In this document: positions 27,812-41,524 of the stretch, one piece after another
Numbering within the stretch: position 1 is the stretch's first letter
Layout of the letters: each line of letters starts with the position of its first letter
Assembly: GCA_030697165.1 (NCBI GenBank)
Contig: JAUYQQ010000011.1
Span: 62,001-126,000, forward strand
DNA length: 64,000 nucleotides
Direction of reading: 5' to 3'
Origin: Acidobacteriota bacterium
Lineage (GTDB): Bacteria; Acidobacteriota; Vicinamibacteria; Vicinamibacterales; UBA2999
Notes under the pieces: generated by a model
The model's database searches: none
Told to the model about the DNA's origin: nothing
What the model saw: the letters and a program-made list of their open reading frames with translations, nothing else
Position numbers and translations under genes: made by a program

Positions 27812-28459
27812 CTAGAAGCGTCCCAGCGGCTCGGCGACCTGCAGCTTTGCGCCGGTGGCGGCAATCACGGCCTCGAGGGTCGTGTCGCTGGCGATCTCTT
27901 TCAGCAGCAATCCATCCGGCGTAACGTCGATCACCGCCAGCTCGGTCACGATCTGGTTGACCACTTTCACGCCCGTCAGCGGCAGCGTGCATGCGGGCAG
28001 GATCTTGTGGCCGCCGTCCTTCGTGGTGTGTTCCATCGCGATCACCACGCGCTTGGCGCCGGCCACCAGGTCCATGGCGCCGCCCATGCCCTTGACCATC
28101 TTGCCGGGGATCATCCAGTTGGCGAGGTTGCCCGCTTCGTCCACCTCGAGCGCGCCCAGCACGGTGAGGTCAATGTGTCCGCCGCGCACCATGGCGAACG
28201 AATCGGCGCTGCTGAAGTACGACGTGCCCGGCAGTTCCGTCACCGTCTCCTTGCCGGCGTTGATCAGGTCGGCATCGACCTCGTCTTCGCCCGGGTACGG
28301 TCCCACGCCCAGCATGCCGTTCTCGGAGTGCAGCGTGATCTCCACACCCGGAGGCACACAGTTGGCGACGAGCGTCGGCATGCCGATCCCCAGGTTCACG
28401 TAGTCGCCGTCCCTGAGGTCCTGGGCGATGCGGCGAACAATGCGATCGCGTTTATCCAT
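27812..28459 (-). CDS. scoB: 3-oxoacid CoA-transferase, subunit B
   Basis: 215-residue beta subunit of a heterodimeric 3-oxoacid (succinyl- or acetyl-) CoA-transferase. The catalytic Glu is in the [10 protein letters not shown] motif (about residues 45-54), preceded by the family's [32 protein letters not shown] and [17 protein letters not shown] are also family blocks. It overlaps scoA by 8 bp. Moves CoA between succinate or acetate and acetoacetate; which donor is used cannot be read from sequence. Confidence 0.94.
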
Positions 28460-29147
28460 TGCGGACCGTCCGTTTCTCGATGCGCTTGACGTAGGAGGGT
28501 CCCTGCAGCAACCGCTTCACGAAGATCCCTGGTGTGTGGATGCCATCCGGTTCGAGCGCCCCGGCCTCGACCAGCTCCTCGACTTCGGCAATGGTGTGGC
28601 GCGCCGCGGTGGCCATCACGGGATTAAAATTGCGCGCGGTCTTGCGGTAAATCAGGTTGCCGACGCGGTCGCCCTTCCACGCCTTGACGAACGCGAAGTC
28701 GGCGGCCAGCGGCGCCTCGAGAATGTAGGTGCGGCCGTCGATCACGCGGCTCTCCTTGCCTTCCGCGATCAACGTCCCGGCGCCGGTCGGCGTGAAGAAC
28801 CCGCCAATGCCGGCGCCCGCGGCGCGCATTCGTTCCGAGAAGGTGCCCTGCGGCACCAGCTCCACCTCGATTTCCTTCTGGAGGAACTGCCGCTCGAACT
28901 CCTTGTTCTCGCCGACGTAGGTCGAGATCATCTTGCGCACCTGGCGCGACTTGAGCAGCGGTCCCACTCCGTAGTCGTCGATGCCGGCGTTGTTACTGAT
29001 GATGGTCAGGTTCTTGGTGCCGCGGCGGTGCAGGGCCGCGATCAGGTGTTCGGGAATGCCGCAGAGCCCGAAGCCGCCCATCATGATGCTGGCGCCATCG
29101 GGAATCGCGGCGACTGCCTCGTCCGCAGTTGCCAGGACCTTATTCAT
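28452..29147 (-). CDS. scoA: 3-oxoacid CoA-transferase, subunit A
   Basis: 231-residue alpha subunit. The CoA-binding glycine loop is [15 protein letters not shown] (about residues 21-35), followed by [18 protein letters not shown] and [15 protein letters not shown], all characteristic. It begins 7 bp after the tyrA stop, in the same direction, so it may be transcribed as the tail of the aromatic supraoperon. Confidence 0.94.
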
Positions 29148-29154
29148 CCGACGA

Positions 29155-29946
29155 TTATAGGCAGGAAGACTTGGTGCGCGCCGCTTCGGCGAAGAACTTT
29201 CGGATCGCCTCGCGATCTTCGAGTCGATCGGACAGAGCCACCAGTTCGGCGGCCATGGCGCGCAGCAGCGGTTTGATCTCGGCGCTGTTCGACGCCAGCA
29301 CGCTCTCCCAGACGCTGGCTTGGCTGCTGGCGAGCCGCGTCGTGTCGCGCAGTCCCTTCCCCGCCCACTTCAGGTTGTCCTCGCCGACCGCCCGCGCCGC
29401 GGTCACCATCAAGGCGCTCGCAACCAGTTGCGGCAGGTGACTGACGGCCGCCATGAGCCGATCGTGCTCCTCGCCGCGATCGGGCAGCACCACCGGGCGG
29501 GCGCCAAGCGCCTCGACGAACCTCACGGCGCGACGGACGGCGTCTGGGGCGTCGGGATTGGTCAGGAACCACGCCCGGCCGTCGAACAGGTCGGCGCGGG
29601 CTTCCGATGGCCCCGTGCTGGTGCCCCCCGCCATGGGATGGCCGCCGACAAACTGTGGCAGCCGGGCCGCCGCGGCAGCGGCCATGATCGCGCGCTTGGT
29701 GCTGCCGGTGTCGATCACGAGCGCCTGCGGATGCATGACCGCGCTGAGGCGCGGCAGCACCCGGATGATCACATCCACCGGCATGGCCAGCACCACGACC
29801 AGCGAGTCGCGGATCGACTCGAGGGGGTCACCCCGGTCGACGGTGCGGACCTCGAGCCCTGGCCACCGCCGGGCGGCCGCCAGCGCCACGGAGGTGCCGA
29901 TCAGACCGGGACCGACGATGGCGAGCCGGGGCTGCGTGTCAGGCAA
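29155..29946 (-). CDS. tyrA: Prephenate dehydrogenase
   Basis: 263-residue NAD(P)-dependent dehydrogenase converting prephenate to 4-hydroxyphenylpyruvate in tyrosine synthesis. Rossmann start LAIVGPGLIGTSVALAAARR (residues 8-27), VVLAMPVDVI, TGSTKRAI, and the active-site VGGHPMAGG (about 98-106). No C-terminal ACT domain, so feedback control must lie elsewhere. The start codon is a TTG that directly follows the TGA of the DAHP synthase gene, so reinitiation is likely. Confidence 0.92.
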   Translation of the reverse strand: MPDTQPRLAIVGPGLIGTSVALAAARRWPGLEVRTVDRGDPLESIRDSLVVVLAMPVDVIIRVLPRLSAVMHPQALVIDTGSTKRAIMAAAAAARLPQFVGGHPMAGGTSTGPSEARADLFDGRAWFLTNPDAPDAVRRAVRFVEALGARPVVLPDRGEEHDRLMAAVSHLPQLVASALMVTAARAVGEDNLKWAGKGLRDTTRLASSQASVWESVLASNSAEIKPLLRAMAAELVALSDRLEDREAIRKFFAEAARTKSSCL

Positions 29947-30993
29947 TCAGCGAGCCCATCCCCTTCGCGCGACCGGCTCGAGACAGATGCTGCGGCCGAT
30001 GGCCGGGGCAATGATCCGCAGTTCCGCCATCAGTCGATCGAACTGTGACGGGAACATCGACTGCGCGCCGTCGCTCATGGCGTGGTCGGGGTCGTTGTGC
30101 ACCTCGATGATCAGGCCGTCGGCGCCGGCCGCGACCGCCGCGCGCGCCATTGGCGCCACCTTGTCGCGCCGGCCCATGCCGTGGCTCGGGTCCACGAAGA
30201 TCGGCAGGTGCGACAGTTCCTTCACGATCGGGATGGCCGACAGGTCGAGCGTGTTGCGGGTGAACGTCTCGAAGGTGCGGATGCCGCGCTCGCACAGGAT
30301 CACGTCGGTGTTGCCGCCGGCCAGGATGTACTCCGCCGACAACAGCCACTCCTCCATCGTCGCGGCGATGCCGCGCTTCAACAGGATCGGCTTGCGCGTG
30401 CGTCCGAGTTCGCGCAGCAGGGTGAAGTTCTGCATGTTGCGGGCGCCGACCTGGTAGATGTCGGCGTACTTGCCGATCACTTCGATCTGGCTGGCGTCCA
30501 TGACCTCGGTCACGAGCTTCAGGTCGTGGGCGTTGGCGCCCGAGCGCAGCAACTGTAGCCCGGCTTCGCCCATGCCCTGGAAGCTGTAGGGCGACGAGCG
30601 CGGCTTGAAGGCGCCGCCACGCAGGATCTTGGCGCCCGCGCGCTTGACCGCAGCGGCGGTGGCGTGGACCTGCTCTTCACTCTCGGCGGAGCAGGGGCCG
30701 GCGATCACGATCACTTCGTCGCCGCCAATGCGGAGATCGCCAATGGTGATGATCGTGTCTTCGGGCTTGAAGGTGCGGCTGGCCAGCTTGTACGGCTGGG
30801 TGATGCGCAGCACTTCGTGCACGCCGGCCATCAGCTCGATCAGCCGAGGGTCGGCCTTGCCACCACCGACCACGCCCAGCACGATGCGCTCGGCGCCGGT
30901 GGACCGGTGCACGTCCATCCCCATCCCGACGAGGCTCGCGATGACGGCTTCGACCTCACCATCACTCGCCCGCTCTTTCATTACGACAACCAT
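29947..30993 (-). CDS. aroF: 3-deoxy-7-phosphoheptulonate synthase (type I-beta, with N-terminal regulatory domain)
   Basis: 348-residue DAHP synthase, the first step of the shikimate pathway (PEP plus erythrose 4-phosphate). The first 75 residues are a ferredoxin-like, ACT-type domain (MVVVMKERASDGEVEAV) as in the Tyr/Phe-regulated Thermotoga enzyme. The barrel has VIAGPCSAES (about 97-106), RGGAFKPRSSPYSFQG (about 122-137), KRGIAATMEEWL and PIFVDPSHGMGRRD. Here it is grouped with chorismate mutase and tyrA, two enzymes acting after the branch point. Confidence 0.94.
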   Translation of the reverse strand: MVVVMKERASDGEVEAVIASLVGMGMDVHRSTGAERIVLGVVGGGKADPRLIELMAGVHEVLRITQPYKLASRTFKPEDTIITIGDLRIGGDEVIVIAGPCSAESEEQVHATAAAVKRAGAKILRGGAFKPRSSPYSFQGMGEAGLQLLRSGANAHDLKLVTEVMDASQIEVIGKYADIYQVGARNMQNFTLLRELGRTRKPILLKRGIAATMEEWLLSAEYILAGGNTDVILCERGIRTFETFTRNTLDLSAIPIVKELSHLPIFVDPSHGMGRRDKVAPMARAAVAAGADGLIIEVHNDPDHAMSDGAQSMFPSQFDRLMAELRIIAPAIGRSICLEPVARRGWAR

Positions 30994-30995
30994 GA

Positions 30996-31313
30996 CTATT
31001 CCTTTTCCTTCTTCTCGCGCGCATCCCGTTCGGCTTCGAGGCGCTGAATGCGCCGGGCCTCGTCCATGATGCGTTCATACAACCGGGCCACGGCGTCGCC
31101 GTCGAGCGGCCCGCCGAGCTCCTCGTTCACCTTCCGCACGTGGGCAATCACCGCCGCCTCGCGCGCCGGCTCGTAGATCGGGCGTCCCAGTTCGTGCTTC
31201 AGCCGGCCGACCGTATACGCGCACCGCGCCCGGCTGTCGAGGAGGCGCACGATCACCTCGTCGATCTTGTCGATCTCGTCCCGCAGCGCTTCGAGGTTCA
31301 ATTCCGCAGCCAT
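30996..31313 (-). CDS. aroQ: Chorismate mutase, AroQ type
   Basis: 105-residue all-helical chorismate mutase (chorismate to prephenate). N-terminal helix LEALRDEIDKIDEVIVRLLDSR with the active-site arginine, the lysine in VGRLKHELGRPIY, and the third helix ending IMDEARRIQRLE. Start set at the ATG at 31313, which overlaps the trpA end by 16 bp; the longer frame is antisense-like extension into trpA. Ends in a Lys/Glu tail. Two bases separate it from the DAHP synthase start; DAHP synthase and chorismate mutase often form complexes. Confidence 0.93.
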   Translation of the reverse strand: MAAELNLEALRDEIDKIDEVIVRLLDSRARCAYTVGRLKHELGRPIYEPAREAAVIAHVRKVNEELGGPLDGDAVARLYERIMDEARRIQRLEAERDAREKKEKE

Positions 31314-32083
31314 CGCACGTACCGCTCCACCTCGTCCAGCAGGCCCGGGGCCTGTCCGTGCTCGGCAATGACTTTCACCAAGGCGCTCCCCACCACCGCG
31401 GCGTCGGCCCATTGGCCGACGGCCTTCACGTGCTCTGGCCGCGACAGGCCAAATCCCAGGGCCAGCGGCAGGTTGGTCTCGGCCTTGACCCGCTCCGCCA
31501 ACTCCCGCGCCGAATCATCCACCGTATCGCGGACGCCGGTGACCCCGAGGCGCGAAATGCCATACAGGAAGCCGCTGCCCAGGGCCGCCGCCTTGCGAAT
31601 CCTCTCGACCGTGGTCGTCGGGCTCAGCAGAAAAATTGTATCAATCCCGGCGCCGGCAAAGGCGGTCCGAAAGGCCTCGCCCTCCTCGGGCGGCATGTCC
31701 AGGGTCAGCACCCCGTCCACCCCGGCCGTTCGGGCCTGGCTCACGAACTCGTCCAACCCCATGCGAAGTATCGGATTGGCGTAGCTGAAGATCACGACCG
31801 GCGCCGAAATAGAGGCGCGGGTGGCTGCCAGCATGGTCAGCACCTTCGGCAAGGTCGCACCGGCCGCCAGGGCCCGCTCGGTGGCCCGCTGGATGACCGG
31901 ACCGTCGGCCAGCGGATCCGAGAACGGCACCCCCAGCTCGATTACGTCGGCCCCGGCCCGGTCGAGCCGTTTCAGGATCTCGGCGGTCTGCTCGAGGCTG
32001 GGATCGCCGGCCGTGATGTAGGTCACGAGGCCGGTTTCGCCCTTGGCGCCGAGCGCCGCGAAGCGGTCGCTAATGCGCCCCAC
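31298..32083 (-). CDS. trpA: Tryptophan synthase alpha subunit
   Basis: 261-residue TIM-barrel subunit that splits indole-3-glycerol phosphate. Catalytic Glu is in [15 protein letters not shown] (about residues 47-61) and catalytic Asp in [28 protein letters not shown] is the family N-terminus. Length is standard. GTG start, overlapping trpB by 14 bp, which keeps alpha and beta subunits stoichiometric. Confidence 0.97.
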
Positions 32084-33323
32084 GGCCGGCCTCCTTCAGG
32101 ATCTGTTCGACGGTCTGCACGTCCTTGTCGCCGCGACCAGACAGGTTGATGACCAGTACGGCACCAGGTCCGAAGTCTTTCCCGTGCTTGAGCACGTAGG
32201 CGATGGCGTGTGCGGACTCGAGCGCCGGAATTATCCCCTCGAGCCGCGCCAGTTCCTGGAACGCCGCCAGGGCCTCGGCATCTGAGGCGTAGTGATACTC
32301 GGCGCGACCGGTCTCTTGCAGGAACGCATGCTCGGGACCCACGGCCGCGTAGTCGAGGCCGGCCGACACCGAGTGGGTCGCCTCGATGTTGCCGTGCGCA
32401 TCCTGCAGCACGAAGGTGCGCGTGCCCTGCAGCACTCCTGGAGCCCCGCCCGCGAAGCGCGCGGCGTGCCGTCCGGAATCGATTGCTTCCCCGCCGGCCT
32501 CCACCCCAATCAGCTTCACCCCCGCATCGTCGATGAACGCGTCGAAGATCCCGATGGCGTTGCTGCCGCCGCCGACGCACGCAATCACCGCATCGGGCAG
32601 CCGTCCCACTTGCGCCAGGCATTGCGCGCGGGCTTCCTTGCCGATCACCGACTGGAATTCGCGCACCATCAGCGGATACGGGTGCGGGCCGAGCGCCGAC
32701 CCCAGCAGGTAGTGCGTGTCGTCCGGGCGCGCGACCCAGTCGCGCATCGCCTCGTTGATCGCGTCCTTCAAGGTGCAGCTGCCGGAATCCACGCCGCACA
32801 CGGTGGCGCCGAGCAGCCGCATGCGGAACACGTTCAGCGCCTGGCGGCGCATGTCTTCGGTGCCCATGTAGACGACGCACTCGAGGCCGAGCAGCGCGCA
32901 CGCGGTGGCGCTGGCCACGCCGTGTTGCCCGGCGCCGGTCTCGGCGACAATGCGCGTCTTGCCCATGCGCTTGGCGAGCAGCGCCTGCCCCAGGGCGTTG
33001 TTGATCTTGTGGGCGCCGGTGTGGGTCAGGTCCTCGCGCTTCAGCAGGATGCGCGCGCCGCCGCAGGCCTCGCTCAACCGACGGGCGTCCCACAGTGGCG
33101 TTTCACGGCCCACGTAGTGCTGCAGCAGCCGCTGTAGCTCTTCGCTGAACGCCGGGTCGCGCCTGGCCTCGAAGTACGCCGCCTCCAATCCCTCGATGGC
33201 GGCGACCAGCGTCTCGGGCACGAAGCGCCCGCCGAACGCGCCGTAGTAGCCGCGCGCGTCGGGATCGCGCCGGCCAAACCATGAATAAGGTGCCAAGGGT
33301 GCCATAGGTGCCTGGGGTGCCAT
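32070..33323 (-). CDS. trpB: Tryptophan synthase beta subunit
   Basis: 417-residue PLP enzyme joining indole and serine. PLP lysine in [13 protein letters not shown] (about residues 94-106), phosphate loop [13 protein letters not shown] (about 240-252), [10 protein letters not shown]. The first 12 residues ([12 protein letters not shown]) are encoded by a 9-bp repeat (33293-33335); the family N-terminus starts after them. Either ATG, at 33323 or 33305, could be used. Follows trpF with 4 bp between. Confidence 0.97.
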
Positions 33324-33335
33324 AGGGTTAAGTGC
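33293..33335. repeat. 9-bp tandem tract at the trpF/trpB junction
   Basis: Units of 9 bp on the plus strand: AAGGGTGCC, ATAGGTGCC, TGGGGTGCC, ATAGGGTTA, ending AGTGCC. Because 9 is a multiple of three it reads as the tripeptide pattern Ala-Pro-X at the start of TrpB. Confidence 0.7.
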
Positions 33336-33930
33336 CTGTTACTCTTACTGCGTCGATGAATGCGCGGAGTTTAAGAAGATCCTTGATGCCCGGTTCGGTC
33401 TCGACACCCGACGCGACATCCACCGCGTAAGGCTCTACCGTCTTGATGGCGTCGGACACGTTCTCTGCGGTCAGTCCGCCGGCCAACACAATCCGCCGCT
33501 TCGCCGCGATCGCGCGCGCTCGCGTCCAATCGACCGTCTGCCCCGTGCCGCCGTGCCGCACGGGGTCGTGCGCATCGAGCAACACCGTCTCATCGTCCAC
33601 CGCGGGCTCAATGCCGTCGGTCGACGCCGCCAAATGCACCGCGCGCAGCACCGGCAGCGCCAGACGGCCAGGCGGGAGCGCGCCATGCACCTGCGCCAGC
33701 CGCAGCCCCGCCTGGGCCGCTTGCGCAATGTCGTCGGCGGACGGGTTCACGAACACGCCAACGGGAGTAATGAACGGTGGCAGGCCATCAACGATTGTCG
33801 CGACGGCTTCAAGGTTCGCATGACGAGGGCTGGCAGGCCATAGCACGAAGCCAACCGCATTGGCGCCGAAAGCGACGGCCGCCTCTGCGTCTTCGCGCCG
33901 CGTCAGGCCGCAAATCTTGACGGCGGTCAC
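33328..33930 (-). CDS. trpF: Phosphoribosylanthranilate isomerase
   Basis: 200-residue TIM barrel catalysing the Amadori rearrangement in tryptophan synthesis. Catalytic Cys is in [12 protein letters not shown] (residues 4-15), the catalytic Asp in [17 protein letters not shown], and the phosphate site in [12 protein letters not shown] and [18 protein letters not shown] start overlapping the trpC stop (GTGA). Confidence 0.95.
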
Positions 33931-34739
33931 GCGGTGGCTCCCATCGTCTCGATCAAGCCGGCCAGGGCCGCGCCCGGATCAGGATCAACCATGAAGCGCT
34001 CGCCCACCAGGAATGCCTGGTAGCCGAGTGCTGTCATTGCCTGCAAATCCTCGCGGGTCTTCAAGCCGCTCTCACTGACGCCGATGACCCCCTGGGGAAT
34101 CCGCCCGGCAATGGTTCGCGAGGCGTCGAGGTCCACTTGAAGCGTGCGCAGGTTGCGGTTGTTCACGCCGATGATCGACGCGCCTGCGGCAAGTGCCCGA
34201 TCGCATTCCACCAGGTCGTGCACTTCGACGAGGGCGGCCAGGCCGAGGGAACGGGCGGCAGCCGAGAAGTCGCGCAGCTCGGCGTCGCTCAGCGCGGCCA
34301 CGATCAACAGGATCGCGTCGGCGCCGGCGGCGCGGGCCTCGAGCAGTTGGTATTCGTGGACCATGAAGTCCTTGCGCAACAGCGGCACCTTCACCGCAGC
34401 TCGCACGGCGACCAGGTGTTCCTGCGAGCCGTCGAAGAACCCCGGCTCCGTCAGCACCGAAATCGCGGCGGCACCGGCCCGCTCGTATCCGGCGGCGATG
34501 GCGACCGGGTCGTACGCCGACCGCAGCACGCCACGCGACGGCGAGCGGCGCTTGCACTCCGCGATGATGTTCACCGCGTTCGGGCGCGACAGACGCGCGG
34601 TGAACTCGTCGCCGGCCGGCGTGGCGGCCATCGCGCGCCGTTCGAGCTGGGCCCGCGGTTCGCGCGCGATCGCCGACGTCACCCGTGACCGGGTGGCGGC
34701 AACAATGGCCTCCAGCAGGTCGGGCGTCGCTGCGCTCAC
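33927..34739 (-). CDS. trpC: Indole-3-glycerol phosphate synthase
   Basis: 270-residue TIM barrel that closes the indole ring. Catalytic Lys/Glu segments: IIAECKRRSPSRGVL (about residues 58-72), VLTEPGFFDGS, PLLRKDFMVHEYQ (about 118-130), and IIGVNNRNLRTL, SESGLKTREDL. Separate from trpF, unlike the E. coli fusion. GTG start overlaps trpD stop by 4 bp. Confidence 0.96.
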   Translation of the reverse strand: MSAATPDLLEAIVAATRSRVTSAIAREPRAQLERRAMAATPAGDEFTARLSRPNAVNIIAECKRRSPSRGVLRSAYDPVAIAAGYERAGAAAISVLTEPGFFDGSQEHLVAVRAAVKVPLLRKDFMVHEYQLLEARAAGADAILLIVAALSDAELRDFSAAARSLGLAALVEVHDLVECDRALAAGASIIGVNNRNLRTLQVDLDASRTIAGRIPQGVIGVSESGLKTREDLQAMTALGYQAFLVGERFMVDPDPGAALAGLIETMGATA

Positions 34740-35755
34740 GCGCCGGCTCCGTTCGAGACGCGAATGAGACGGTCGAGAACCGCGGCCGCCTCGCCGCTAT
34801 CGATGGCGGTCGCCGCGCGGGCGACCCCGGCCCGCACGGTCTCGACGGCGCCCGCGATGAACAGCGCCGCGCCGGCGTTCAGCAACACGACGTCGCGTGG
34901 CGCGCCCTTGGCGCCGGTCAGCACCGAGCGAACAATCACGGCGTTGGTGGTGGCATCACCGCCCTTCAGGGACTCGGGGGTGGCCTTGGCGAGACCGAAG
35001 TCCGCGGGGTGCACATAGAACGTCTGCACCGCGTTGTTCCGGCACTCCGACACCTTGGTGTAGCCCGTCGTCGACAGCTCGTCGAGGCCATCGGCGCCGT
35101 GCACGACCCAGGCGCGTTCGGAGCCAAGCAGCGCCAGCGACCGCGCGATCAACTCGGTGAGGTCGGGCCGCGGGACGCCGACGATCTGCCGGGTCGGGCG
35201 CGCCGGGTTCGTGAGCGGCCCCAGCAGGTTGAAGGCCGTGCGCACGCCGAGGTCCTTGCGTGCCTGGGCCGCGTGCTTCATGGCGGGATGGAACGTCGGG
35301 GCGAAGAAGAACGCGATGCCGACCTCGGCCAGGCAGCGTGCCGCCACATCGGGCGTGGCCTGGATGTTGACGCCGAGGGATTCGAGCACGTCGGCGCTGC
35401 CGCACTGGCTCGAAACGGATCGGTTGCCATGCTTGGCCACCGGCGTGCCGCACGCGGCCATCACGATCGCGGCCGCCGTGGAGATGTTGAAGCTGCCGGA
35501 GCGATCGCCACCGGTGCCGCACGTGTCGAACACCGGACCTGGTTGCGCCGGCACGGCCACTGCATTGGCCCGCATCGTCTGCGCCAGGCCCACCAGTTCG
35601 CTGGGCCGCTCGCCTTTCATGGCGAGACCGACCAGCAGCCCGGCGATCTGCGCGGGTGCGGCCTCTCCACGCATGATGGCGGCCATCGCGGCCGCGGCCT
35701 CTTCGGTGCTCAGGTCTTCCTGCCGGCGCAGTTTCTCGATCAGGGCTGGGAACAT
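34736..35755 (-). CDS. trpD: Anthranilate phosphoribosyltransferase
   Basis: 339-residue transferase adding phosphoribose from PRPP to anthranilate. PRPP/metal motif FDTCGTGGDRSGSFNIST (about residues 77-94), KHGNRSVSSQCGSADVLE (about 106-123), and the acidic metal site SECRN region. ATG at 35755 follows the trpG stop by two bases; the frame upstream to 36091 is an out-of-family shadow of trpG. Cytosolic, second step of the Trp branch. Confidence 0.96.
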   Translation of the reverse strand: MFPALIEKLRRQEDLSTEEAAAAMAAIMRGEAAPAQIAGLLVGLAMKGERPSELVGLAQTMRANAVAVPAQPGPVFDTCGTGGDRSGSFNISTAAAIVMAACGTPVAKHGNRSVSSQCGSADVLESLGVNIQATPDVAARCLAEVGIAFFFAPTFHPAMKHAAQARKDLGVRTAFNLLGPLTNPARPTRQIVGVPRPDLTELIARSLALLGSERAWVVHGADGLDELSTTGYTKVSECRNNAVQTFYVHPADFGLAKATPESLKGGDATTNAVIVRSVLTGAKGAPRDVVLLNAGAALFIAGAVETVRAGVARAATAIDSGEAAAVLDRLIRVSNGAGA

Positions 35756-35757
35756 GG

Positions 35758-36324
35758 TCACATCTCGAGGAAGTTGCGCAGAATGCGGCGGCCTTCGTTG
35801 GTCAGCACCGATTCGGGGTGAAACTGCACGCCGTGAATCGGCAACGTCCGATGGCGAATGCCCATGACGAGGTTGTCTTCCTTGGTTCGCGCGGTGATCT
35901 CCAGGTCTTGCGGCATGCTCGATTCGGCCACGATCAGCGAGTGGTAGCGGCCGGCCTGGAACGACGTGGAGATGCCGGCGAACACTCCCTGGCCGTTGTG
36001 CTCGACGGTGGAGGTCTTGCCGTGAATGGGCTGAGGCGCGCGCCTGACTTCCCCGCCAAACGCCAATCCGATCGCCTGGTGGCCGAGGCACACGCCCAGC
36101 ACCGGCATCCGCGGCCCGAACTCCTTGATGGCGTCGAGCGAGACGCCCGCTTGTTCGGGGCGGCCTGGGCCAGGCGAGATCACCACACGGTCGTGGCCAA
36201 GCGAGCGCAGCGTGTCGAGCGACACCTCGTCGTTGCGCCTGACGACCAGTTGCGCGCCAAGTTCACCCAGGTACTGCACCAGGTTGTAGGTGAACGAATC
36301 GTAGTTATCGATGACCAGGACCAT
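35758..36324 (-). CDS. trpG: Anthranilate synthase glutaminase subunit
   Basis: 188-residue class I glutamine amidotransferase that feeds ammonia to TrpE. Nucleophile Cys in PVLGVCLGHQAIG (about residues 77-89), His-Glu of the triad in VQFHPESVLT (about 169-178). It begins MVLVIDNYDSFTYNLVQYL, the family start. May also serve para-aminobenzoate synthase, as no separate pabA is seen here. Lies 6 bp after trpE. Confidence 0.96.
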   Translation of the reverse strand: MVLVIDNYDSFTYNLVQYLGELGAQLVVRRNDEVSLDTLRSLGHDRVVISPGPGRPEQAGVSLDAIKEFGPRMPVLGVCLGHQAIGLAFGGEVRRAPQPIHGKTSTVEHNGQGVFAGISTSFQAGRYHSLIVAESSMPQDLEITARTKEDNLVMGIRHRTLPIHGVQFHPESVLTNEGRRILRNFLEM

Positions 36325-36330
36325 GAATGC

Positions 36331-37803
36331 CTACAGTCCGGTCTGCGCCAGTTCCAGCGCCCGCAACATGGCGCGCGCCTTGTCCTTGGTCTCTTCGTAC
36401 TCCGCGGTCGGGTTCGAGTCGGCGACGATGCCGGCGCCGGCTTGGATGTAGGCCTTGCCGCCTTCCATCAAGATGGAGCGGATGGCGATGCAGAAGTCGA
36501 GGTTGCCGGCAAAGTCGAGATAGCCGACGGCGCCTGCGTACAGCCCGCGGCGGTCCGGTTCGAGCTCGTTGATGATCTGCATGGCGCGCACCTTGGGCGC
36601 CCCCGAGACCGTGCCGGCCGGGAAGCAGGACACCAGCGCGTCGAGCCGGTCGTTGCCCTCAGCGAGCTGTCCTTCGACCACCGATACCAGGTGCATCACG
36701 TGCGAATAACGCTCGAGCGCCATGAAGGTCGGCACGCGGACGGTGCCGTAGTCGCAGACGCGGCCAATGTCGTTGCGGCCCAGGTCCACCAGCATCACGT
36801 GCTCGGCCTTCTCCTTCTCGCTGCGCTTGAGTTCCTCGGCCAGCCGCACATCCTCTTCGTCGGTCTTGCCGCGCGGCCGGGTGCCGGCAATGGGATGCGT
36901 GACGGCGTGACGGCCCTCGACCCGCACCAGCATTTCCGGTGACGAACCGACGATCGAGCGGTCGCCCATGCGAATGAAGAACATGTAGGGCGACGGGTTG
37001 ACATGGCGCAGCGCCCGGTAGACCGTGAACGCATCGACGCCGACCTCGGCCTCGAAGCGCTGCGACAACACGACCTGGTAGACGTCGCCGGCGGCAATGT
37101 ATTCCTTCGCTTGCTTGACGATCGACTCGTAGGCTTCCTGGGTGAAGTTCGACACCAGCTTCAGCGCGTCGCCGCCGGCCGTGCGTTTGAGCGACAGCGC
37201 GCGATCGAGCTCGCCCTCGAGAAATTCGATCTTGGCGCACGCGAACTGGTACAGCGACTTCAGGTCTTCGTCGCCCGAGATGCGGGCGTTGGCGATCAAC
37301 AGGATGCGATGCTGCACGTGGTCGAACGCGAGCACCGTGTCGAAGAGCATGAAGCCGGCGTCATCGCGCTCCGACGTGCCCGCATCGGCGCGCGCCGTGG
37401 TCGGCTCGAACCACGCGGCGGTGTCGTAGCCCAGGTAGCCGACCGCCCCGCCGGTGAAGCGTGGCAGGCCCGGCACAAACGGCGACTGGAAGCTGTTCAT
37501 CAGGCCCCGCAGGGTCTCGATGAACGGTTGTTCGCTCTTGCTGGTGACCCCCGCCTTCTCGATCTCGGTCTCGCCATTCTTGCCGCGCAGGATCAGGAAC
37601 GGATCCTTGCCGAGGAACGAATAGCGCCCAACATGCTCGCCGCCCTCAACGCTCTCCAACAGGAACGCATAGTCGGAATGCTCGGCAATCTTCAGGAAGG
37701 CCGACACCGGCGTCAGCAGGTCGGCCACCAGTTCCTTGCACACCGGCACAAACGTGGCCCGCTTCGCGAGATCCACGAACTCTTCGAACGTCGTCTGCTT
37801 CAT
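36331..37803 (-). CDS. trpE: Anthranilate synthase component I
   Basis: 490-residue chorismate-using enzyme that commits chorismate to tryptophan. The tryptophan feedback motif LLES is present in YAFLLESVEGGEH (about residues 47-59). Catalytic blocks: GAVGYLGYD, VVLSQRFE, PIAGTRPRGKT (about 330-340), LVDLGRNDIGRV, and the C-terminal GTVSGAPKVRAMQII and QAGAGIVADSNPTAEYEET. The ATG at 37803 overlaps the aroDE stop by 4 bp. Activity is probably limited by Trp at the enzyme level as well as by the leader upstream. Confidence 0.96.
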   Translation of the reverse strand: MKQTTFEEFVDLAKRATFVPVCKELVADLLTPVSAFLKIAEHSDYAFLLESVEGGEHVGRYSFLGKDPFLILRGKNGETEIEKAGVTSKSEQPFIETLRGLMNSFQSPFVPGLPRFTGGAVGYLGYDTAAWFEPTTARADAGTSERDDAGFMLFDTVLAFDHVQHRILLIANARISGDEDLKSLYQFACAKIEFLEGELDRALSLKRTAGGDALKLVSNFTQEAYESIVKQAKEYIAAGDVYQVVLSQRFEAEVGVDAFTVYRALRHVNPSPYMFFIRMGDRSIVGSSPEMLVRVEGRHAVTHPIAGTRPRGKTDEEDVRLAEELKRSEKEKAEHVMLVDLGRNDIGRVCDYGTVRVPTFMALERYSHVMHLVSVVEGQLAEGNDRLDALVSCFPAGTVSGAPKVRAMQIINELEPDRRGLYAGAVGYLDFAGNLDFCIAIRSILMEGGKAYIQAGAGIVADSNPTAEYEETKDKARAMLRALELAQTGL

Positions 37804-39251
37804 TGCTTCTCCAATATGCCAAGCCTTGCGGCCGCGGCGTCTCGCATCACGCGATCGGCCGGCCGCTGCTCGGTCCACCACTCAAACTGGGCTTGCGCCT
37901 GCGCCACCAGCATGTCGAGGCCGCCAATCGTCCGGCAGCCCGCGGCGGCAGCGTCGCGCAGCAGCCGGGTTTGCGGCGGGTTGTAGACGAGGTCGTAGAC
38001 CAACTCACCGTCAAGCGAATGGCCGGCCGGCAGCGGCGACCGCTCAGTGTCGGGCGCGGTGCCCACGGGAGTGGCGTTCACGAGCAGGTCCCAGGAACCT
38101 GGCGCGGGTGGCCATTCACCGATGGCGGCACTGGTCAGGGCGGAAATCTCCCGGGCCTGCTCCGGCCGGCGGGCGCACAAGGTCACGTGGACCCCGGCCG
38201 CAGCCAGGGCGATCGCCACCGACCGGGCGGCGCCGCCGGCGCCGAGCACGGTCGCGCGCTTGTTGGGCAGCCGCATGGCCGATTCGAGGGGCGACAGGAA
38301 ACCGGCGACGTCGGTGTTGCAGCCCAGCCATTTCTTGCCGACCCGCCGCAACGTGTTCACCGACTGGATGCGGCGGCTGACCGGGTCGCATTCGTCGGCC
38401 CGCTCGAACGCCTGCACCTTGAACGGGGCCGTCACGCTGGCACCGGCGAGATTCACCACCTCGGCAAACGCCGTGAAGTCGTCGTAGTCGTGGGCTGCCA
38501 GGGGCAGGTACACCGCGTCGAGGTTGGCGGCGCGAAAAGCGGCGTTGTGCATCGACGGCGACACCGAGTGCGTCACGGGCTTGCCGACGACGCCGTAGAT
38601 GGCGGTGTGGCTGCCGATGCGCCGGAAGCGGAACTCATTCAGCATGCGCGGCAGATCGATCTGGCCGGGCGCGACCTGGTCGCCGGCGTAGGTCCAGCAC
38701 GACCCGAACCAACTCGCCAGGACGCGCGTGGCGATGCCCGCATCCCCCATGGCAATCAGGGCCATGGGCACCCGGGTCGCAAGGCCGATCGATCGCAGCG
38801 TGAGACAGTCGGCCAACCGCTGTGCCGTCACCGCCAGCTTGACCACCTCGGCGCCGCTGGCGAGCATGGCCTGCGCCTTGTCGTGCACATCCGCCGGCGT
38901 CCCCTCGAAATCGTGATGCGAGAGCACGATTCGCCGGCCGCCGGTCTGCGCCATCAAGTCGGCGCAACTGCCGTTCCACTCGAGGTCCACGAACTCGGCG
39001 CCGAGGGTGAGCGCCTCGGCGAGAATGCGCCGGCGCTCTTCTTCGCTGCCGGCGAAATGCCCGCCCTCGGACTTGGGGCGGCAGGTGACGATGACGGGCT
39101 TGCGGCGGCCGGCCAGGGCCGCGGCCGCACTGGGGTCGCGAACGGAGTCGAGCCGCAACTCCACCAGGTCGGCCTCGCCCGCCTGGTCACGGCGCGTACG
39201 CAGCTCGGCCATGGTGTCGGCCGTCACGGTCGCGCAGAGTTTCGCCTTCAT
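37800..39251 (-). CDS. aroDE: Bifunctional 3-dehydroquinate dehydratase / shikimate dehydrogenase
   Basis: 483-residue fusion doing steps 3 and 4 of the shikimate pathway. Residues about 1-215 are type I dehydroquinase: KLCATVTADT, VELRLDSV, catalytic His in IVLSHHDFEGTP and Schiff-base Lys in EVVKLAVTAQ. Residues about 220-480 are shikimate dehydrogenase: YGVVGKPVTHSVSPSMHN, the Lys of VTAPFKVQAF, GCNTDVAGF and the NADPH loop LGAGGAARSVAIAL. The fusion is best known from plants and some bacteria. First structural gene after the leader; its ribosome site (GGGGA, 7 bp upstream) is contributed by the 8-bp-period tract. Confidence 0.95.
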   Translation of the reverse strand: MKAKLCATVTADTMAELRTRRDQAGEADLVELRLDSVRDPSAAAALAGRRKPVIVTCRPKSEGGHFAGSEEERRRILAEALTLGAEFVDLEWNGSCADLMAQTGGRRIVLSHHDFEGTPADVHDKAQAMLASGAEVVKLAVTAQRLADCLTLRSIGLATRVPMALIAMGDAGIATRVLASWFGSCWTYAGDQVAPGQIDLPRMLNEFRFRRIGSHTAIYGVVGKPVTHSVSPSMHNAAFRAANLDAVYLPLAAHDYDDFTAFAEVVNLAGASVTAPFKVQAFERADECDPVSRRIQSVNTLRRVGKKWLGCNTDVAGFLSPLESAMRLPNKRATVLGAGGAARSVAIALAAAGVHVTLCARRPEQAREISALTSAAIGEWPPAPGSWDLLVNATPVGTAPDTERSPLPAGHSLDGELVYDLVYNPPQTRLLRDAAAAGCRTIGGLDMLVAQAQAQFEWWTEQRPADRVMRDAAAARLGILEKQ

Positions 39252-39254
39252 TCC

Positions 39255-39334
39255 AAAATCCCCAAGTCCCAAAATCCCTAAATCCCTAAATCCAGCATCC
39301 CAAAGCACCAGATCGCCAAATCACCAATCCACCA
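39255..39334. repeat. 8-bp-period tract between the attenuator and aroDE
   Basis: Ten consecutive 8-bp units on the plus strand, from AAAATCCC, CAAGTCCC, AAAATCCC, TAAATCCC, TAAATCCA to AAGCACCA, GATCGCCA, AATCACCA, ATCCACCA. On the mRNA strand the units read GGGATTTN and TGGTGANN. It lies in the transcribed leader and supplies the aroDE ribosome site. Confidence 0.8.
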
Positions 39335-39376
39335 AATAAAAAAGCGCCTCTTCCCTATCGGGTTGAAGAGGCGCTT
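39334..39376 (-). terminator. Intrinsic terminator of the trp/aro attenuator
   Basis: Perfect 12-bp stem AAGCGCCTCTTC / GAAGAGGCGCTT (39342-39353 and 39365-39376) with an 11-nt loop. On the minus strand it is followed by TTTTTTATTT, so it terminates leftward transcription heading into aroDE. It lies about 85 bp before the aroDE start and no complete gene ends there, which fits attenuation rather than the end of an operon. Confidence 0.85.
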
Positions 39377-39404
39377 CGGTCGAGCGTCGTATTACGCGTC
39401 GTGG

Positions 39405-39458
39405 TTATACGGACCGGCTAGCCTCTCCTGCTGGGCACCAATACCACCACGTACGCAC
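39405..39458 (-). CDS. trpL: Trp operon leader peptide
   Basis: Seventeen-codon ORF, predicted product MRTWWYWCPAGEASRSV, with GTG start and GGGAG (39463-39467) four bases upstream. Three Trp codons (TGG TGG TAT TGG, 39438-39449) and one Tyr codon sit together, as in ribosome-mediated attenuators. The start-plus-first-Trp segment (39446-39458) can pair with ACCACGACGCG just after the stop (39395-39405, one bulge). GGAGAGGC within the ORF (39421-39428) is complementary over 8 bp, one G-U, to the 5' arm of the terminator (39365-39372), a candidate antiterminator. Ribosome stalling when Trp-tRNA is scarce would then let transcription continue into aroDE-trp. The pairing scheme is by eye. Confidence 0.8.
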   Translation of the reverse strand: MRTWWYWCPAGEASRSV

Positions 39459-39533
39459 ACCGCTCCCGATCTGGTCGAAAGACCGGTTCCGAGGGGCGGT
39501 GAACAAGACTCGCGAGCGCATGTGAACGTCGAA

Positions 39534-39563
39534 AGGCTAACAGACCCAGTGTGTTGGCGTCAA
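39534..39563 (-). promoter_or_regulatory. Candidate promoter of the aroDE-trp-tyrA supraoperon
   Basis: On the minus strand TTGACG (39558-39563), an 18-bp spacer and TAGCCT (39534-39539). Start of transcription would be near 39527, giving about 70 nt before the leader ORF and roughly 190 nt to the terminator. Confidence 0.55.
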
Positions 39564-39606
39564 ACCGCGGAGGTGGCTGGGGCACTTGAGGCATCCCGTT
39601 CCGAGC

Positions 39607-39635
39607 TTGCTTCACCCGGGGGAACACCGTATAAC
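39607..39635 (+). promoter_or_regulatory. Candidate promoter of the S55-like gene
   Basis: TTGCTT (39607-39612), 17-bp spacer, TATAAC (39630-39635). Predicted transcript start near 39642, which excludes the ATG at 39638 and supports the ATG at 39668. Divergent from the trp/aro promoter, about 70 bp away. Confidence 0.55.
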
Positions 39636-39667
39636 CAATGTCAGCCGCCTTTTCATCAGAAACTTGC

Positions 39668-41524
39668 ATGTATTCACGCATTTTCGCGCTCATCGCCCTC
39701 GTGATCGGTTCCTTGGTCGCCGCGCCGCAGGCGCAGCTGGCCACGATGCCGCTTGATGAGGTCCGCCCTGGCATGGTCGGCGTCGGCCGCACCGTGTTTT
39801 CGGGCACCACCCTCGAGGATTTCAAGGTCCACGTCCTGGGCGTGCTGCGCAACGTGCTTGCCCCCAAGCGGAGCCTGATCCTGGCGCGGCTCGAAGGCGG
39901 GCCCCTGGCCAAGACCGGCGTGATCGCCGGCATGAGCGGCAGCCCGGTCTACATCGATGGGCGGCTGATCGGCGCCGTGTCGTATTCGCTCGGCCAGTTC
40001 TCGACAGAGCCGATTGCCGGGATCACGCCGATTGCCGAGATGATCGACGCGACCATGATGCCGGCGGCCGCGCGGGGTTCGCGGCCGGTGGCCATCGCCT
40101 GGCCGGCCACGCCCGCGCAGCTGATCAGCATCTGGTCCCAGGACCTGGGTCGATCGCGATCGTTCGTGGATGACCCGTCGCAAGCACTGGTCCTGTCGGG
40201 CGTGGCAGGCGAGGTCGGCCGCCTGGGATCGATGCTGAGGCCGATTGCGGTGCCCATGGTCGCCGCGGGCTTTGACCAGTCGGTCATGGATCCGATCTCG
40301 CCGGCGCTGGCCGCCGCCGGCTTCGTGCCGGTCTCTGGGGCGGGGCTGTCGAGTGCTGCGCAATCGCCGGGCACCACGACGGCCGGTGGCAACGACCGCC
40401 GGCTCGCGCCTGGAGACGCGGTGGGCGTGGCGCTGATGACCGGCGACTTCGAACTGGGCGCGACCGGCACGGTCACTCACGTCGATGGCGATCGCGTCTA
40501 TGCCTTCGGGCACCCGCTGTACAACCTGGGGCCGACCGAGTTCCCGATGACCAAGGCCCAGGTGCAGGTTGTGCTGCCCAGCTTGATGGCGTCGAGCAAG
40601 CTGGCTAGCTTTGGCGAGATTGTCGGCACGGTGCAGCAGGACCGCGCGACCGCGATTGCCGGACGCCTTGGCGCCGGCCCGTCGCTGATTCCCGTGTCGA
40701 TTACGCTGAACTCCGACCGGGGGCCGTCGCGGTCGTTCAACTTCGGCGTGGTCCGCGACTTCACCTTCACGCCGCTCCTCACGTATCTGACCGTCGCCAA
40801 CGTCCTCACGTCGTACGAACGCGGCGCCGGTCCTGCATCGTTTGCCATTCGCGGCACCGCGTCCATCAGGACGCAGGGCGATATCGCGTTCGAGGACATG
40901 TTCTCGGGCGAGCAACCTGCCGGGGGCGCCGCCGCCTACGTGGCTGGCCCGCTGACGGCGTTGTTGAAGAACGCCTCCGAAACCGTGGACGTCGATCGCA
41001 TCGACCTCGTGATCGATGCCAGCGAGCAGCAGCGCAGCGCCCGCATCGAGCGGGTCTGGCTCGACACGACCCGGCCCCGTGCCGGCCGTGATGCGGTGGT
41101 GAATGTCGCGATGCGCAACGCGCGCGGCGACGAAGTGATCAAGCAGGTGCCGATTCAGCTGCCGGCCAACGCTACCGGTTCGCTGCAGCTGATCGTGGCT
41201 GATGCCGCCCGAACGACCGCCGACGACCGCCGCGATACCCGCGGCGCCGACATGCAGCGCGTGTCGCAGTTGATGCGCACCTTCAACCGCGCCCGCCGCA
41301 ACAACCGTCTTTACGTCCGCCTCACCTCCCCCGACTCCGGCGCCGTCGTCAACGGCGAGCCCATGGCGGCGCTGCCGCCGTCGGTGCTGTCGGTGCTCGA
41401 AGCCGACCGCAACAGCGGCACGGTCGGTGTCCTGCGAACGACCACGCGCGGCGAGTGGGAATTGCCCCTCGATTTCGCCGTGACCGGTTCGCGCCAGTTG
41501 ACCCTCAACCTCGATCAACCTTAA
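39668..41524 (+). CDS. Secreted SpoIVB-type (S55) peptidase-like protein with reversed Ser/His order
   Basis: 618-residue exported protein. Signal peptide about 1-22. Residues 50-130 match the C-terminal part of the SpoIVB S55 peptidase domain, including GVIAGMSGSPVYIDGRLIGAV with the catalytic-type GxSGSP (Ser90/Ser92). Residues about 262-370 match the N-terminal part of that domain (GTVTHVDGDRVYAFGHPLYN, His282). In SpoIVB the His precedes the Ser, so the blocks are swapped here. The C-terminal 250 residues look like beta-rich domains. The next gene starts directly after its stop. Peptidase activity and substrate are unproven. Confidence 0.8.
   Translation: MYSRIFALIALVIGSLVAAPQAQLATMPLDEVRPGMVGVGRTVFSGTTLEDFKVHVLGVLRNVLAPKRSLILARLEGGPLAKTGVIAGMSGSPVYIDGRLIGAVSYSLGQFSTEPIAGITPIAEMIDATMMPAAARGSRPVAIAWPATPAQLISIWSQDLGRSRSFVDDPSQALVLSGVAGEVGRLGSMLRPIAVPMVAAGFDQSVMDPISPALAAAGFVPVSGAGLSSAAQSPGTTTAGGNDRRLAPGDAVGVALMTGDFELGATGTVTHVDGDRVYAFGHPLYNLGPTEFPMTKAQVQVVLPSLMASSKLASFGEIVGTVQQDRATAIAGRLGAGPSLIPVSITLNSDRGPSRSFNFGVVRDFTFTPLLTYLTVANVLTSYERGAGPASFAIRGTASIRTQGDIAFEDMFSGEQPAGGAAAYVAGPLTALLKNASETVDVDRIDLVIDASEQQRSARIERVWLDTTRPRAGRDAVVNVAMRNARGDEVIKQVPIQLPANATGSLQLIVADAARTTADDRRDTRGADMQRVSQLMRTFNRARRNNRLYVRLTSPDSGAVVNGEPMAALPPSVLSVLEADRNSGTVGVLRTTTRGEWELPLDFAVTGSRQLTLNLDQP

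What the first reader, a model, noticed from the sequence alone, without database searches (positions are those of the whole stretch)
39334..39563. Trp leader peptide and attenuator controlling a shikimate-to-aromatic supraoperon
The minus strand of the 416-bp gap before aroDE reads as a complete ribosome-mediated attenuator. Seen directly: TTGACG-18-TAGCCT promoter-like boxes, GGGAG, a GTG ORF with three Trp codons and one Tyr (MRTWWYWCPAGEASRSV), an 8-bp antiterminator complement (39421-39428 with 39365-39372), and a perfect 12-bp terminator stem followed by TTTTTTATTT, all within about 230 bp upstream of aroDE. Attenuation of this type is well known for trpE in Proteobacteria and Actinobacteria. 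Here it would control aroDE, all seven trp genes, chorismate mutase, DAHP synthase and tyrA, so tryptophan scarcity would raise supply of chorismate and also the tyrosine branch. Function is inferred.
Basis: partly seen in the sequence, partly recalled or inferred. Interest (0 to 1): 0.9.

Follow-up and report, generated by a model that had tools for sequence, protein, structure and literature searches.

The report
Amino-acid-sensing RNA switch before aromatic operon
In this uncultured Acidobacteriota bacterium a short RNA segment appears to sense, through a stalling ribosome, whether tryptophan (and probably tyrosine) is scarce and only then lets the cell copy the gene row that makes these amino acids; comparison with relatives strongly supports the switch, but nobody has tested it in the laboratory.

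Summary
Upstream of aroDE lie a promoter, a Trp-codon ORF, an antiterminator and a strong terminator, the only terminator with a Trp-rich ORF in the 64-kb window at the stringency used. In 75 of 75 non-redundant aroDE upstream regions of the order an aromatic-rich ORF precedes a terminator, in 74 with an antiterminator complement; both helices covary. A ribosome-footprint folding model behaves as it does for E. coli trpL. Best reading: a ribosome-mediated transcription attenuator of aroDE-trpEGDCFBA-aroQ-aroF-tyrA.

Corrections: the leader more likely starts at ATG 39521 (38 codons, near-leaderless) than at GTG 39458, and the sensor is not Trp alone: Tyr is 16.6% of sensor codons against 1.2% upstream. 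In a sister family the same position, before an aroDE-his-trp operon, carries a His+Trp leader, mostly with Tyr/Phe. Leader codons thus seem to track what the operon makes. Classical attenuation is known; mixed aromatic and His/aromatic sensing over a supraoperon looks like a new variant. Tyr and His sensing are inferred, not tested.

The parts
39534..39563 (-). sigma-70-type promoter, TTGACG 39563-39558, 18-nt spacer, TAGCCT 39539-39534; predicted transcript start near 39527
   Evidence: promoter score 8 here; score 9 or more in 51 of 75 relatives against 1.5% of shuffles; start site inferred
39405..39521 (-). leader peptide ORF, ATG 39521 to TAA 39407-39405, 38 aa MRSRVLFTAPRNRSFDQIGSGVRTWWYWCPAGEASRSV
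   Evidence: ATG 11-12 nt after the -10 box in 9 of 9 genus sequences
39438..39449 (-). sensor codons TGG TGG TAT TGG (Trp Trp Tyr Trp)
   Evidence: Trp and Tyr enriched at this place in 75 relatives
39421..39428 (-). antiterminator strand 2, GGAGAGGC, 9 nt after the last sensor codon
   Evidence: covariation
39365..39372 (-). strand 3, GCCTCTTC, shared by antiterminator and terminator
39334..39376 (-). intrinsic terminator: 12-bp stem 39376-39365 / 39353-39342, 11-nt loop, T tract 39341-39334
   Evidence: covariation
37800..39251 (-). aroDE, fused 3-dehydroquinate dehydratase and shikimate dehydrogenase, first gene of the operon
   Evidence: NCBIfam and Pfam
31298..37803 (-). trpE, trpG, trpD, trpC, trpF, trpB, trpA
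   Evidence: NCBIfam (trpF below curated cut-off); order conserved
29155..31307 (-). chorismate mutase aroQ, DAHP synthase aroF, tyrA
   Evidence: NCBIfam (tyrA below curated cut-offs); order conserved
27812..29147 (-). 3-oxoacid CoA-transferase subunits A and B, possibly in the same transcript
   Evidence: NCBIfam; next to tyrA also in relatives; co-transcription inferred

Best explanation
It is a ribosome-mediated transcription attenuator that controls the aroDE-trpEGDCFBA-aroQ-aroF-tyrA supraoperon in response to charged tRNA-Trp and probably tRNA-Tyr. RNA polymerase starts a few nucleotides before ATG 39521 and a ribosome translates the leader. If Trp- or Tyr-tRNA is short, the ribosome stops on TGG TGG TAT TGG; strand 2 (39428-39421) stays free and pairs with strand 3 (39372-39365) as soon as that emerges, so the terminator cannot form and the operon is transcribed. 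If the codons are read quickly the ribosome covers strand 2 and moves to the stop codon, strand 3 pairs with strand 4 and transcription ends before aroDE. Shown by sequence and comparison: promoter, ORF, sensor codons, both competing helices, operon. Inferred: that it works so in the cell, the start of transcription, and that Tyr is sensed.
For: 75 of 75 aroDE upstream regions of the order have an aromatic-rich ORF plus terminator, 74 an antiterminator complement of 6 bp or more; 0 of 39 aroDE regions outside the order, same pipeline, have 3 Trp in 7 codons with a strong terminator. Terminator: 72 cells changed on both sides, 23.5 by shuffling; antiterminator: 29 against 15.2; 0 of 500 shuffles as high in each. 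Operon order conserved. Folding with a ribosome footprint, transcript cut before strand 4: antiterminator 0.005 free, 0.83-1.00 on the four sensor codons, 0.27 one codon on, 0.00 at the stop; E. coli K-12 trpL: 0.0 free, 0.45 and 0.96 on its Trp codons, 0.0 at the stop. In relatives 67 of 68 are below 0.2 at the stop and 56 of 68 above 0.5 on some Trp codon. Tyr 87 of 525 sensor codons against 12 of 974 upstream. The terminator has no gene upstream on its strand: the neighbour is divergent.
Against: No expression data. With the complete transcript the terminator wins in every ribosome state (own leader; 0 of 68 relatives favour the antiterminator), so the choice must be kinetic; the proven E. 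coli leader behaves alike. The low value at the stop follows largely from the assumed footprint covering strand 2. 12 of 68 relatives do not pass 0.5 on any Trp codon. No 1:2 hairpin is conserved in the order. For the antiterminator two of five covariation measures are less clear (62 and 20 of 500 shuffles as high), and shuffles do not correct for relatedness. Phe is not enriched in the sensor (5.0% against 8.9%).
Confidence: 0.9

Rival explanations
1. The same attenuator, but it senses tryptophan only; the Tyr (and Phe) codons are passengers fixed by RNA sequence constraints or by the chemistry of the nascent peptide.
For: Known trp leaders are described with runs of UGG (PMC1262725, passages). 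Some leaders have no Tyr in the window: 7 of 75. L272 (FWWWC), L257 and L267 belong to operons with tyrA and have Phe but no Tyr. TAA and TAG being stops, TAT/TAC variation alone does not prove selection for Tyr.
Against: Tyr is about 14 times commoner in the sensor window than upstream and sits at different places in the run (WWYW, WYWYW, YWWWY, WRYRF). The last aromatic codon is more evenly spaced from strand 2 (median 9 nt, sd 2.5) than the last Trp codon (median 12, sd 4.3), although taking the last of several codons narrows a spread by itself. Some leaders have 1 Trp and several Tyr/Phe (L071, L073). The Tyr-less WWWW sensor of G017 belongs to the one operon read that lacks tyrA.
Confidence: 0.3
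2. A plain partial terminator that lowers operon expression without sensing translation; the short ORF is untranslated.
For: A strong terminator lies before the first gene; the free own leader already disfavours the antiterminator. No evidence of translation exists.
Against: Trp/Tyr codons, their distance to strand 2 and the three-way pairing are conserved across the order; a plain terminator needs none of these.
Confidence: 0.03
3. The terminated leader RNA or its peptide has a further task in trans, as for S. meliloti rnTrpL and peTrpL, besides or instead of attenuation.
For: rnTrpL starts with the ATG of trpL, destabilises trpDC mRNA, and its peptide acts in trans (PMC7298713, passages); the leader here is also near-leaderless.
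Against: The conserved parts are those needed for sensing and pairing; the N-terminal half of the peptide varies outside the genus. Not exclusive with attenuation and not tested.
Confidence: 0.07

Closest known systems
trp leader (trpL) attenuator of E. coli
   Same: Leader ORF with Trp codons 9-14 nt before strand 2, antiterminator and intrinsic terminator sharing strand 3, trp genes downstream; same behaviour in the footprint folding model.
   Different: First gene is aroDE and the operon includes aroQ, aroF and tyrA; Tyr codons in the sensor; leader near-leaderless; no conserved 1:2 hairpin in the order; no match to Rfam, Pfam or NCBIfam models.
S. meliloti trpLE(G) attenuator, rnTrpL/peTrpL (PMC7298713, passages)
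   Same: Leader ORF at the transcript's 5' end, Trp codons, attenuator.
   Different: 14-codon leader before trpE(G) only; here about 38 codons, Trp plus Tyr, before a supraoperon.
Predicted trp attenuators of Corynebacterium and Streptomyces (PMC1262725, passages)
   Same: Leader peptide, antiterminator and terminator with a shared conserved triple pairing.
   Different: Described with double or triple UGG repeats and ahead of trp operons or trpS, not an aro-trp-tyr supraoperon.
Attenuators proposed ahead of tyrA-containing supraoperons (PMC1173090, section 36)
   Same: Idea that large aromatic supraoperons, some next to trp genes (Desulfovibrio vulgaris), are under attenuation.
   Different: From a database screen in other phyla; the section names no leader peptide or sensor codon, and the paper holds no occurrence of Acidobacteria.
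Leaders with codons for several amino acids (thr, ilv operons; recalled)
   Same: One leader read by more than one kind of charged tRNA, matching the products of the operon.
   Different: Branched-chain or Thr/Ile there; Trp/Tyr here and His/Trp/Tyr/Phe in the sister family.

Membership tests
Ribosome-mediated transcription attenuator (trpL type) | Short leader ORF with clustered codons of the regulated amino acid | tested here: met
   75 of 75 relatives; Trp 212 of 525 sensor codons
Ribosome-mediated transcription attenuator (trpL type) | Intrinsic terminator between leader ORF and first gene | tested here: met
   covariation
Ribosome-mediated transcription attenuator (trpL type) | Antiterminator exclusive with the terminator, free when the ribosome stalls, covered when it reaches the stop | tested here: met
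   covariation; folding with footprints (56 of 68 above 0.5 on a Trp codon, 67 of 68 below 0.2 at the stop); a model, not an experiment
Ribosome-mediated transcription attenuator (trpL type) | Genes for synthesis of the sensed amino acid downstream | tested here: met
Ribosome-mediated transcription attenuator (trpL type) | Conserved 1:2 (pause, anti-antiterminator) hairpin | tested here: inconclusive
   RNAalifold gives only the terminator in the order; the own free leader nevertheless hides strand 2 (0.005) and 27 of 68 relatives do so
Ribosome-mediated transcription attenuator (trpL type) | Read-through rises when the amino acid is limiting | not testable with these tools
   needs reporter or RNA-seq
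Multi-amino-acid attenuator (thr/ilv type) | Codons of two or more regulated amino acids within the stall window | tested here: met
   Tyr in 68 of 75 leaders, Tyr or Phe in 71 of 75
Multi-amino-acid attenuator (thr/ilv type) | Each of these amino acids, when short, raises expression | not testable with these tools
   needs separate Trp, Tyr and His starvation
Curated leader families (Rfam; Pfam and NCBIfam leader peptides) | Match at the curated threshold | tested here: not met
   Rfam: window, six relatives' loci; leader peptides, three given: NCBIfam and Pfam no match
T-box or riboswitch | Match to a curated fold | tested here: not met
   only a tRNA in the window at gathering score; no credible match at E up to 10 in 39240-39640

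The most novel reading that the evidence does not exclude
In the class Vicinamibacteria the attenuator in front of aroDE is a multi-amino-acid sensor whose codons follow the gene content of the supraoperon behind it: Trp+Tyr (at times Phe) where aroDE-trp-aroQ-aroF-tyrA follow, His+Trp, mostly with Tyr/Phe, where a his cluster lies between aroDE and trp, and Trp without Tyr in the one genome read that has lost tyrA. One RNA switch would then set the common chorismate supply for all the amino acids it reads.
Probability: 0.55. Interest if true: 0.75.

Novelty: new variant of a known kind. Interest (0 to 1): 0.6.

Why it matters
[quoted passage not shown] Here an order-wide, covarying switch with a clear target helps to fill that gap. 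If Tyr and His are really read, one leader would integrate several end products over a row of about 11 to 20 genes, and two sister lineages give a natural experiment on how sensor codons and operon content evolve together. The leaders are short and ready for reporter tests.

Tried and rejected
GTG 39458 as leader start: less likely, not conserved in the genus. T-box, riboswitch or catalogued leader: no match. Terminator of an upstream gene: the neighbour is divergent. A conserved 1:2 hairpin: none found in the order. A first folding model that began 60 nt before the sensor gave 0.97 antiterminator for the free own leader; from the predicted start it gives 0.005; I use the latter. For the sister family the same model does not separate stall from stop (mean antiterminator 0.55 at the stop, 0.77 over sensor codons, 5 of 11 below 0.35 at the stop), so its switching steps are unresolved. 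Of the covariance-model hits outside the class (about 45 of the 76 genomes matched) most are weak; of 21 hits read by eye several are terminators or other leaders. That every Tyr-less leader goes with loss of tyrA: not so, 3 of 42 tyrA operons have Phe instead.

The T count asked of a terminator was relaxed from 5 to 4 of 8 after the script stopped at L039. The 39 outside loci are those of 55 whose match reaches the AroD part. In one search, L243 was left out because its leader was cut by the stretch, and loci whose contig ends before tyrA were left out; 'Tyr present' there includes L240, whose Tyr stands three codons before the Trp run. Many loci are also among the 75.

Full report
Observation. 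On both strands of the 64-kb window only two terminators reach the score used, and only this one has a Trp-rich ORF. The operon is aroDE, trpE, trpG, trpD, trpC, trpF, trpB, trpA, chorismate mutase, DAHP synthase and a prephenate-dehydrogenase-like tyrA, followed by 3-oxoacid CoA-transferase subunits (trpF and tyrA below NCBIfam's curated cut-offs).

Where it comes from. The window lies in a 5.39-Mb genome. The nearest named relatives are Acidobacteriota metagenome assemblies, a few of them named Vicinamibacterales, Vicinamibacteraceae or Vicinamibacteria.

Conservation in the order. AroDE was found in 59 of 60 relatives. With named loci added and duplicates removed, 75 upstream regions were read: 75 of 75 have an aromatic-rich ORF followed by a terminator, and 74 of 75 an antiterminator complement of at least 6 bp (rows left out are listed under Tried and rejected). 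Of 39 aroDE loci outside the order, read with the same pipeline, none has 3 or more Trp codons in 7 together with a strong terminator. A covariance model of the 75 matched 123 of 149 genomes of a class sample, 111 of them own or order-mates. Two of these 111 matches are weak (E about 0.005) in genomes without the aroDE start. Seven listed order-mates had no match: six have no aroDE match at E 1e-10 and one only its 3' end. Six more unmatched genomes of that sample were not listed, and I did not check the place of every one of the 111 matches; 40 such loci fetched afterwards all have the leader before aroDE.

Structure. On the 75-row alignment the terminator helix is 92.6% paired, with 72 cells changed on both sides (23.5 by shuffling, 0 of 500 as high). 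The antiterminator is 85.7% paired, with 29 such cells (15.2, 0 of 500); its number of pairs with a change on both sides is less telling (6 against 4.5, 62 of 500), and it exceeds the slid versions in covariation score. One strand thus covaries with two partners. Shuffles do not correct for relatedness. RNAalifold finds no further conserved hairpin in the order.

Promoter and start codon. A promoter score of 9 or more occurs in 51 of 75 relatives and 1.5% of shuffles. In 65 of 75 the first in-frame start codon counted (5 nt or more after the box) stands 6-26 nt after the best -10 box; in the own genus it is ATG, 11-12 nt after it, in 9 of 9. With a usual distance to the start of transcription the 5' UTR of the own leader would be about 5 nt. 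The leader is then near-leaderless, much as described for S. meliloti trpL (PMC7298713, passages).

How it works. I assumed a ribosome footprint from 18 nt before to 12 nt after the first base of the A-site codon, and a transcript cut before strand 4 emerges. The own leader then forms the antiterminator with probability 0.005 when free, 0.98, 0.99, 1.00 and 0.83 on W, W, Y and W, 0.27 one codon further and 0.00 at the stop. E. coli K-12 trpL, fetched and run with a shorter helix minimum, gives 0.0 free, 0.45 and 0.96 on its two Trp codons and 0.0 at the stop. With the complete transcript both leaders prefer the terminator in every state, so the choice must be made before strand 4 is copied. 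Of 68 relatives with a promoter score of at least 8, 67 are below 0.2 at the stop, 56 exceed 0.5 on some Trp codon and 54 on some Tyr or Phe codon; 27 are below 0.2 when free; none favours the antiterminator in the full transcript. The low values at the stop follow largely from the footprint covering strand 2.

What it senses. Codons -3 to -9 before strand 2 hold 212 Trp, 87 Tyr, 26 Phe and 5 His among 525; codons -13 to -25 hold 3, 12, 87 and 23 among 974. Tyr is enriched about 14-fold; Phe and His are not. 68 of 75 leaders have Tyr in the window and 71 Tyr or Phe. TAT and TAC are both used (66 and 38 in the last 12 codons). The last aromatic codon keeps a narrower distance to strand 2 (median 9 nt, sd 2.5) than the last Trp codon (median 12, sd 4.3). 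Of 42 tyrA-containing operons taken, 39 have Tyr in the sensor and the other three Phe. G017, rated 98% complete, has no tyrA match in its genome, no aroQ-aroF-tyrA behind trpA, and the sensor WWWW; its congeners G032 and G036 have tyrA and WWYW. That is one event and proves nothing alone. These counts treat related sequences as separate.

The sister family. In family f17 (same class, another order) 11 of 11 genomes with an assembled aroDE start have a leader ending in His/aromatic codons, such as VRRWRTVFHYHWHP*, and a terminator before aroDE. All 11 have Trp and two or more His; 9 have Tyr or Phe. A TTGAC promoter with a matching -10 was found in 10 of the 11. In 8 of 8 stretches long enough, his genes and then trpE follow aroDE; usual order thiF-like, hisZ, G, D, C, B, H, A, F, IE, with thiF, or thiF, hisZ and hisG, not detected in three (families by NCBIfam for one genome). 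aroQ, aroF and tyrA come further on in the two genomes read that far (L232, L233). In the own genome hisD is on another contig. His is 35 of about 166 codons there, in a window of about 15 codons, against 5 of 525 in the order. The f17 antiterminator is 93.8% paired but with almost no covariation, an anti-antiterminator overlapping it is predicted, and the footprint model does not give a clean switch. So function there is less secure than in the order.

Elsewhere. In family f41, outside the class, three genomes have Trp-rich ORFs before aroDE-trpE (LWWWPSSE*, NWWWYC*, SWWFLRS*). By eye I saw no such leader before aroDE in the seven f16 and f18 loci read, whose aroDE is not followed by trp or his genes in the stretches read.

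Comparison with what is known. Mechanically this is classical trp attenuation. It matches no curated RNA or leader-peptide model. Published trp attenuators of Actinobacteria are described with double or triple UGG (PMC1262725, passages). Attenuation of tyrA supraoperons was proposed from a database screen (PMC1173090, section 36). My ten library searches listed no paper on this leader, on trp attenuation in Vicinamibacteria or on leaders with mixed Trp/Tyr or His/Trp codons. Most subscription papers are not in that library, so this does not prove absence.

Verdict. A ribosome-mediated attenuator of an aromatic supraoperon, present wherever I could read the aroDE start in the order (0.9). That it also reads Tyr is likely but unproved; that sensor codons follow operon content across lineages is the boldest reading that the evidence allows (0.55).

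Noticed in passing
39251-39333 (minus strand): Between terminator and aroDE start lies GGGATTTAGGGATTTTGGGACTTGGGG, a G-quadruplex-like repeat; it is not shared by the other eight genus sequences, whose spacers are shorter or different.
   Followed up: partly
L295, L204 (G078, family f19): aroDE-thiF-hisZ-hisG-hisD-hisC are linked, with a short ORF containing HPVHPVHP behind TTGACG-18-TAGCCT but no visible terminator: perhaps a leader acting in another way.
   Followed up: partly
L153, L154 (G356, G264, family f58): Leu/Val-rich short ORF MTRPAILLLLVLVLVLVTQGAN* (and a near copy) followed by a strong terminator: looks like a branched-chain leader.
   Followed up: no
L156, L157 (G408, G373, family f26): Ile/Val-rich short ORF ending VRIVIGIRVICIAMEANGTA* (and a near copy) followed by a terminator.
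   Followed up: no
L151 (G391) and L160 (G281): Trp-rich short ORFs with terminators before a trpB-like gene (trpB-aroF in G391), in other families of the phylum.
   Followed up: partly
L241 (G017): No tyrA match in a genome rated 98% complete, and trpA is followed directly by the CoA-transferase genes: possible tyrosine auxotroph.
   Followed up: partly
G119, G143 (whole genomes): Two order-mates rated 97-98% complete show no aroDE match at E 1e-10; possible loss of the pathway.
   Followed up: no
39638-41524 (plus strand): The divergent neighbour matches Pfam Peptidase_S55 (SpoIVB) and stays divergent from aroDE in relatives of the order and in family f19.
   Followed up: partly
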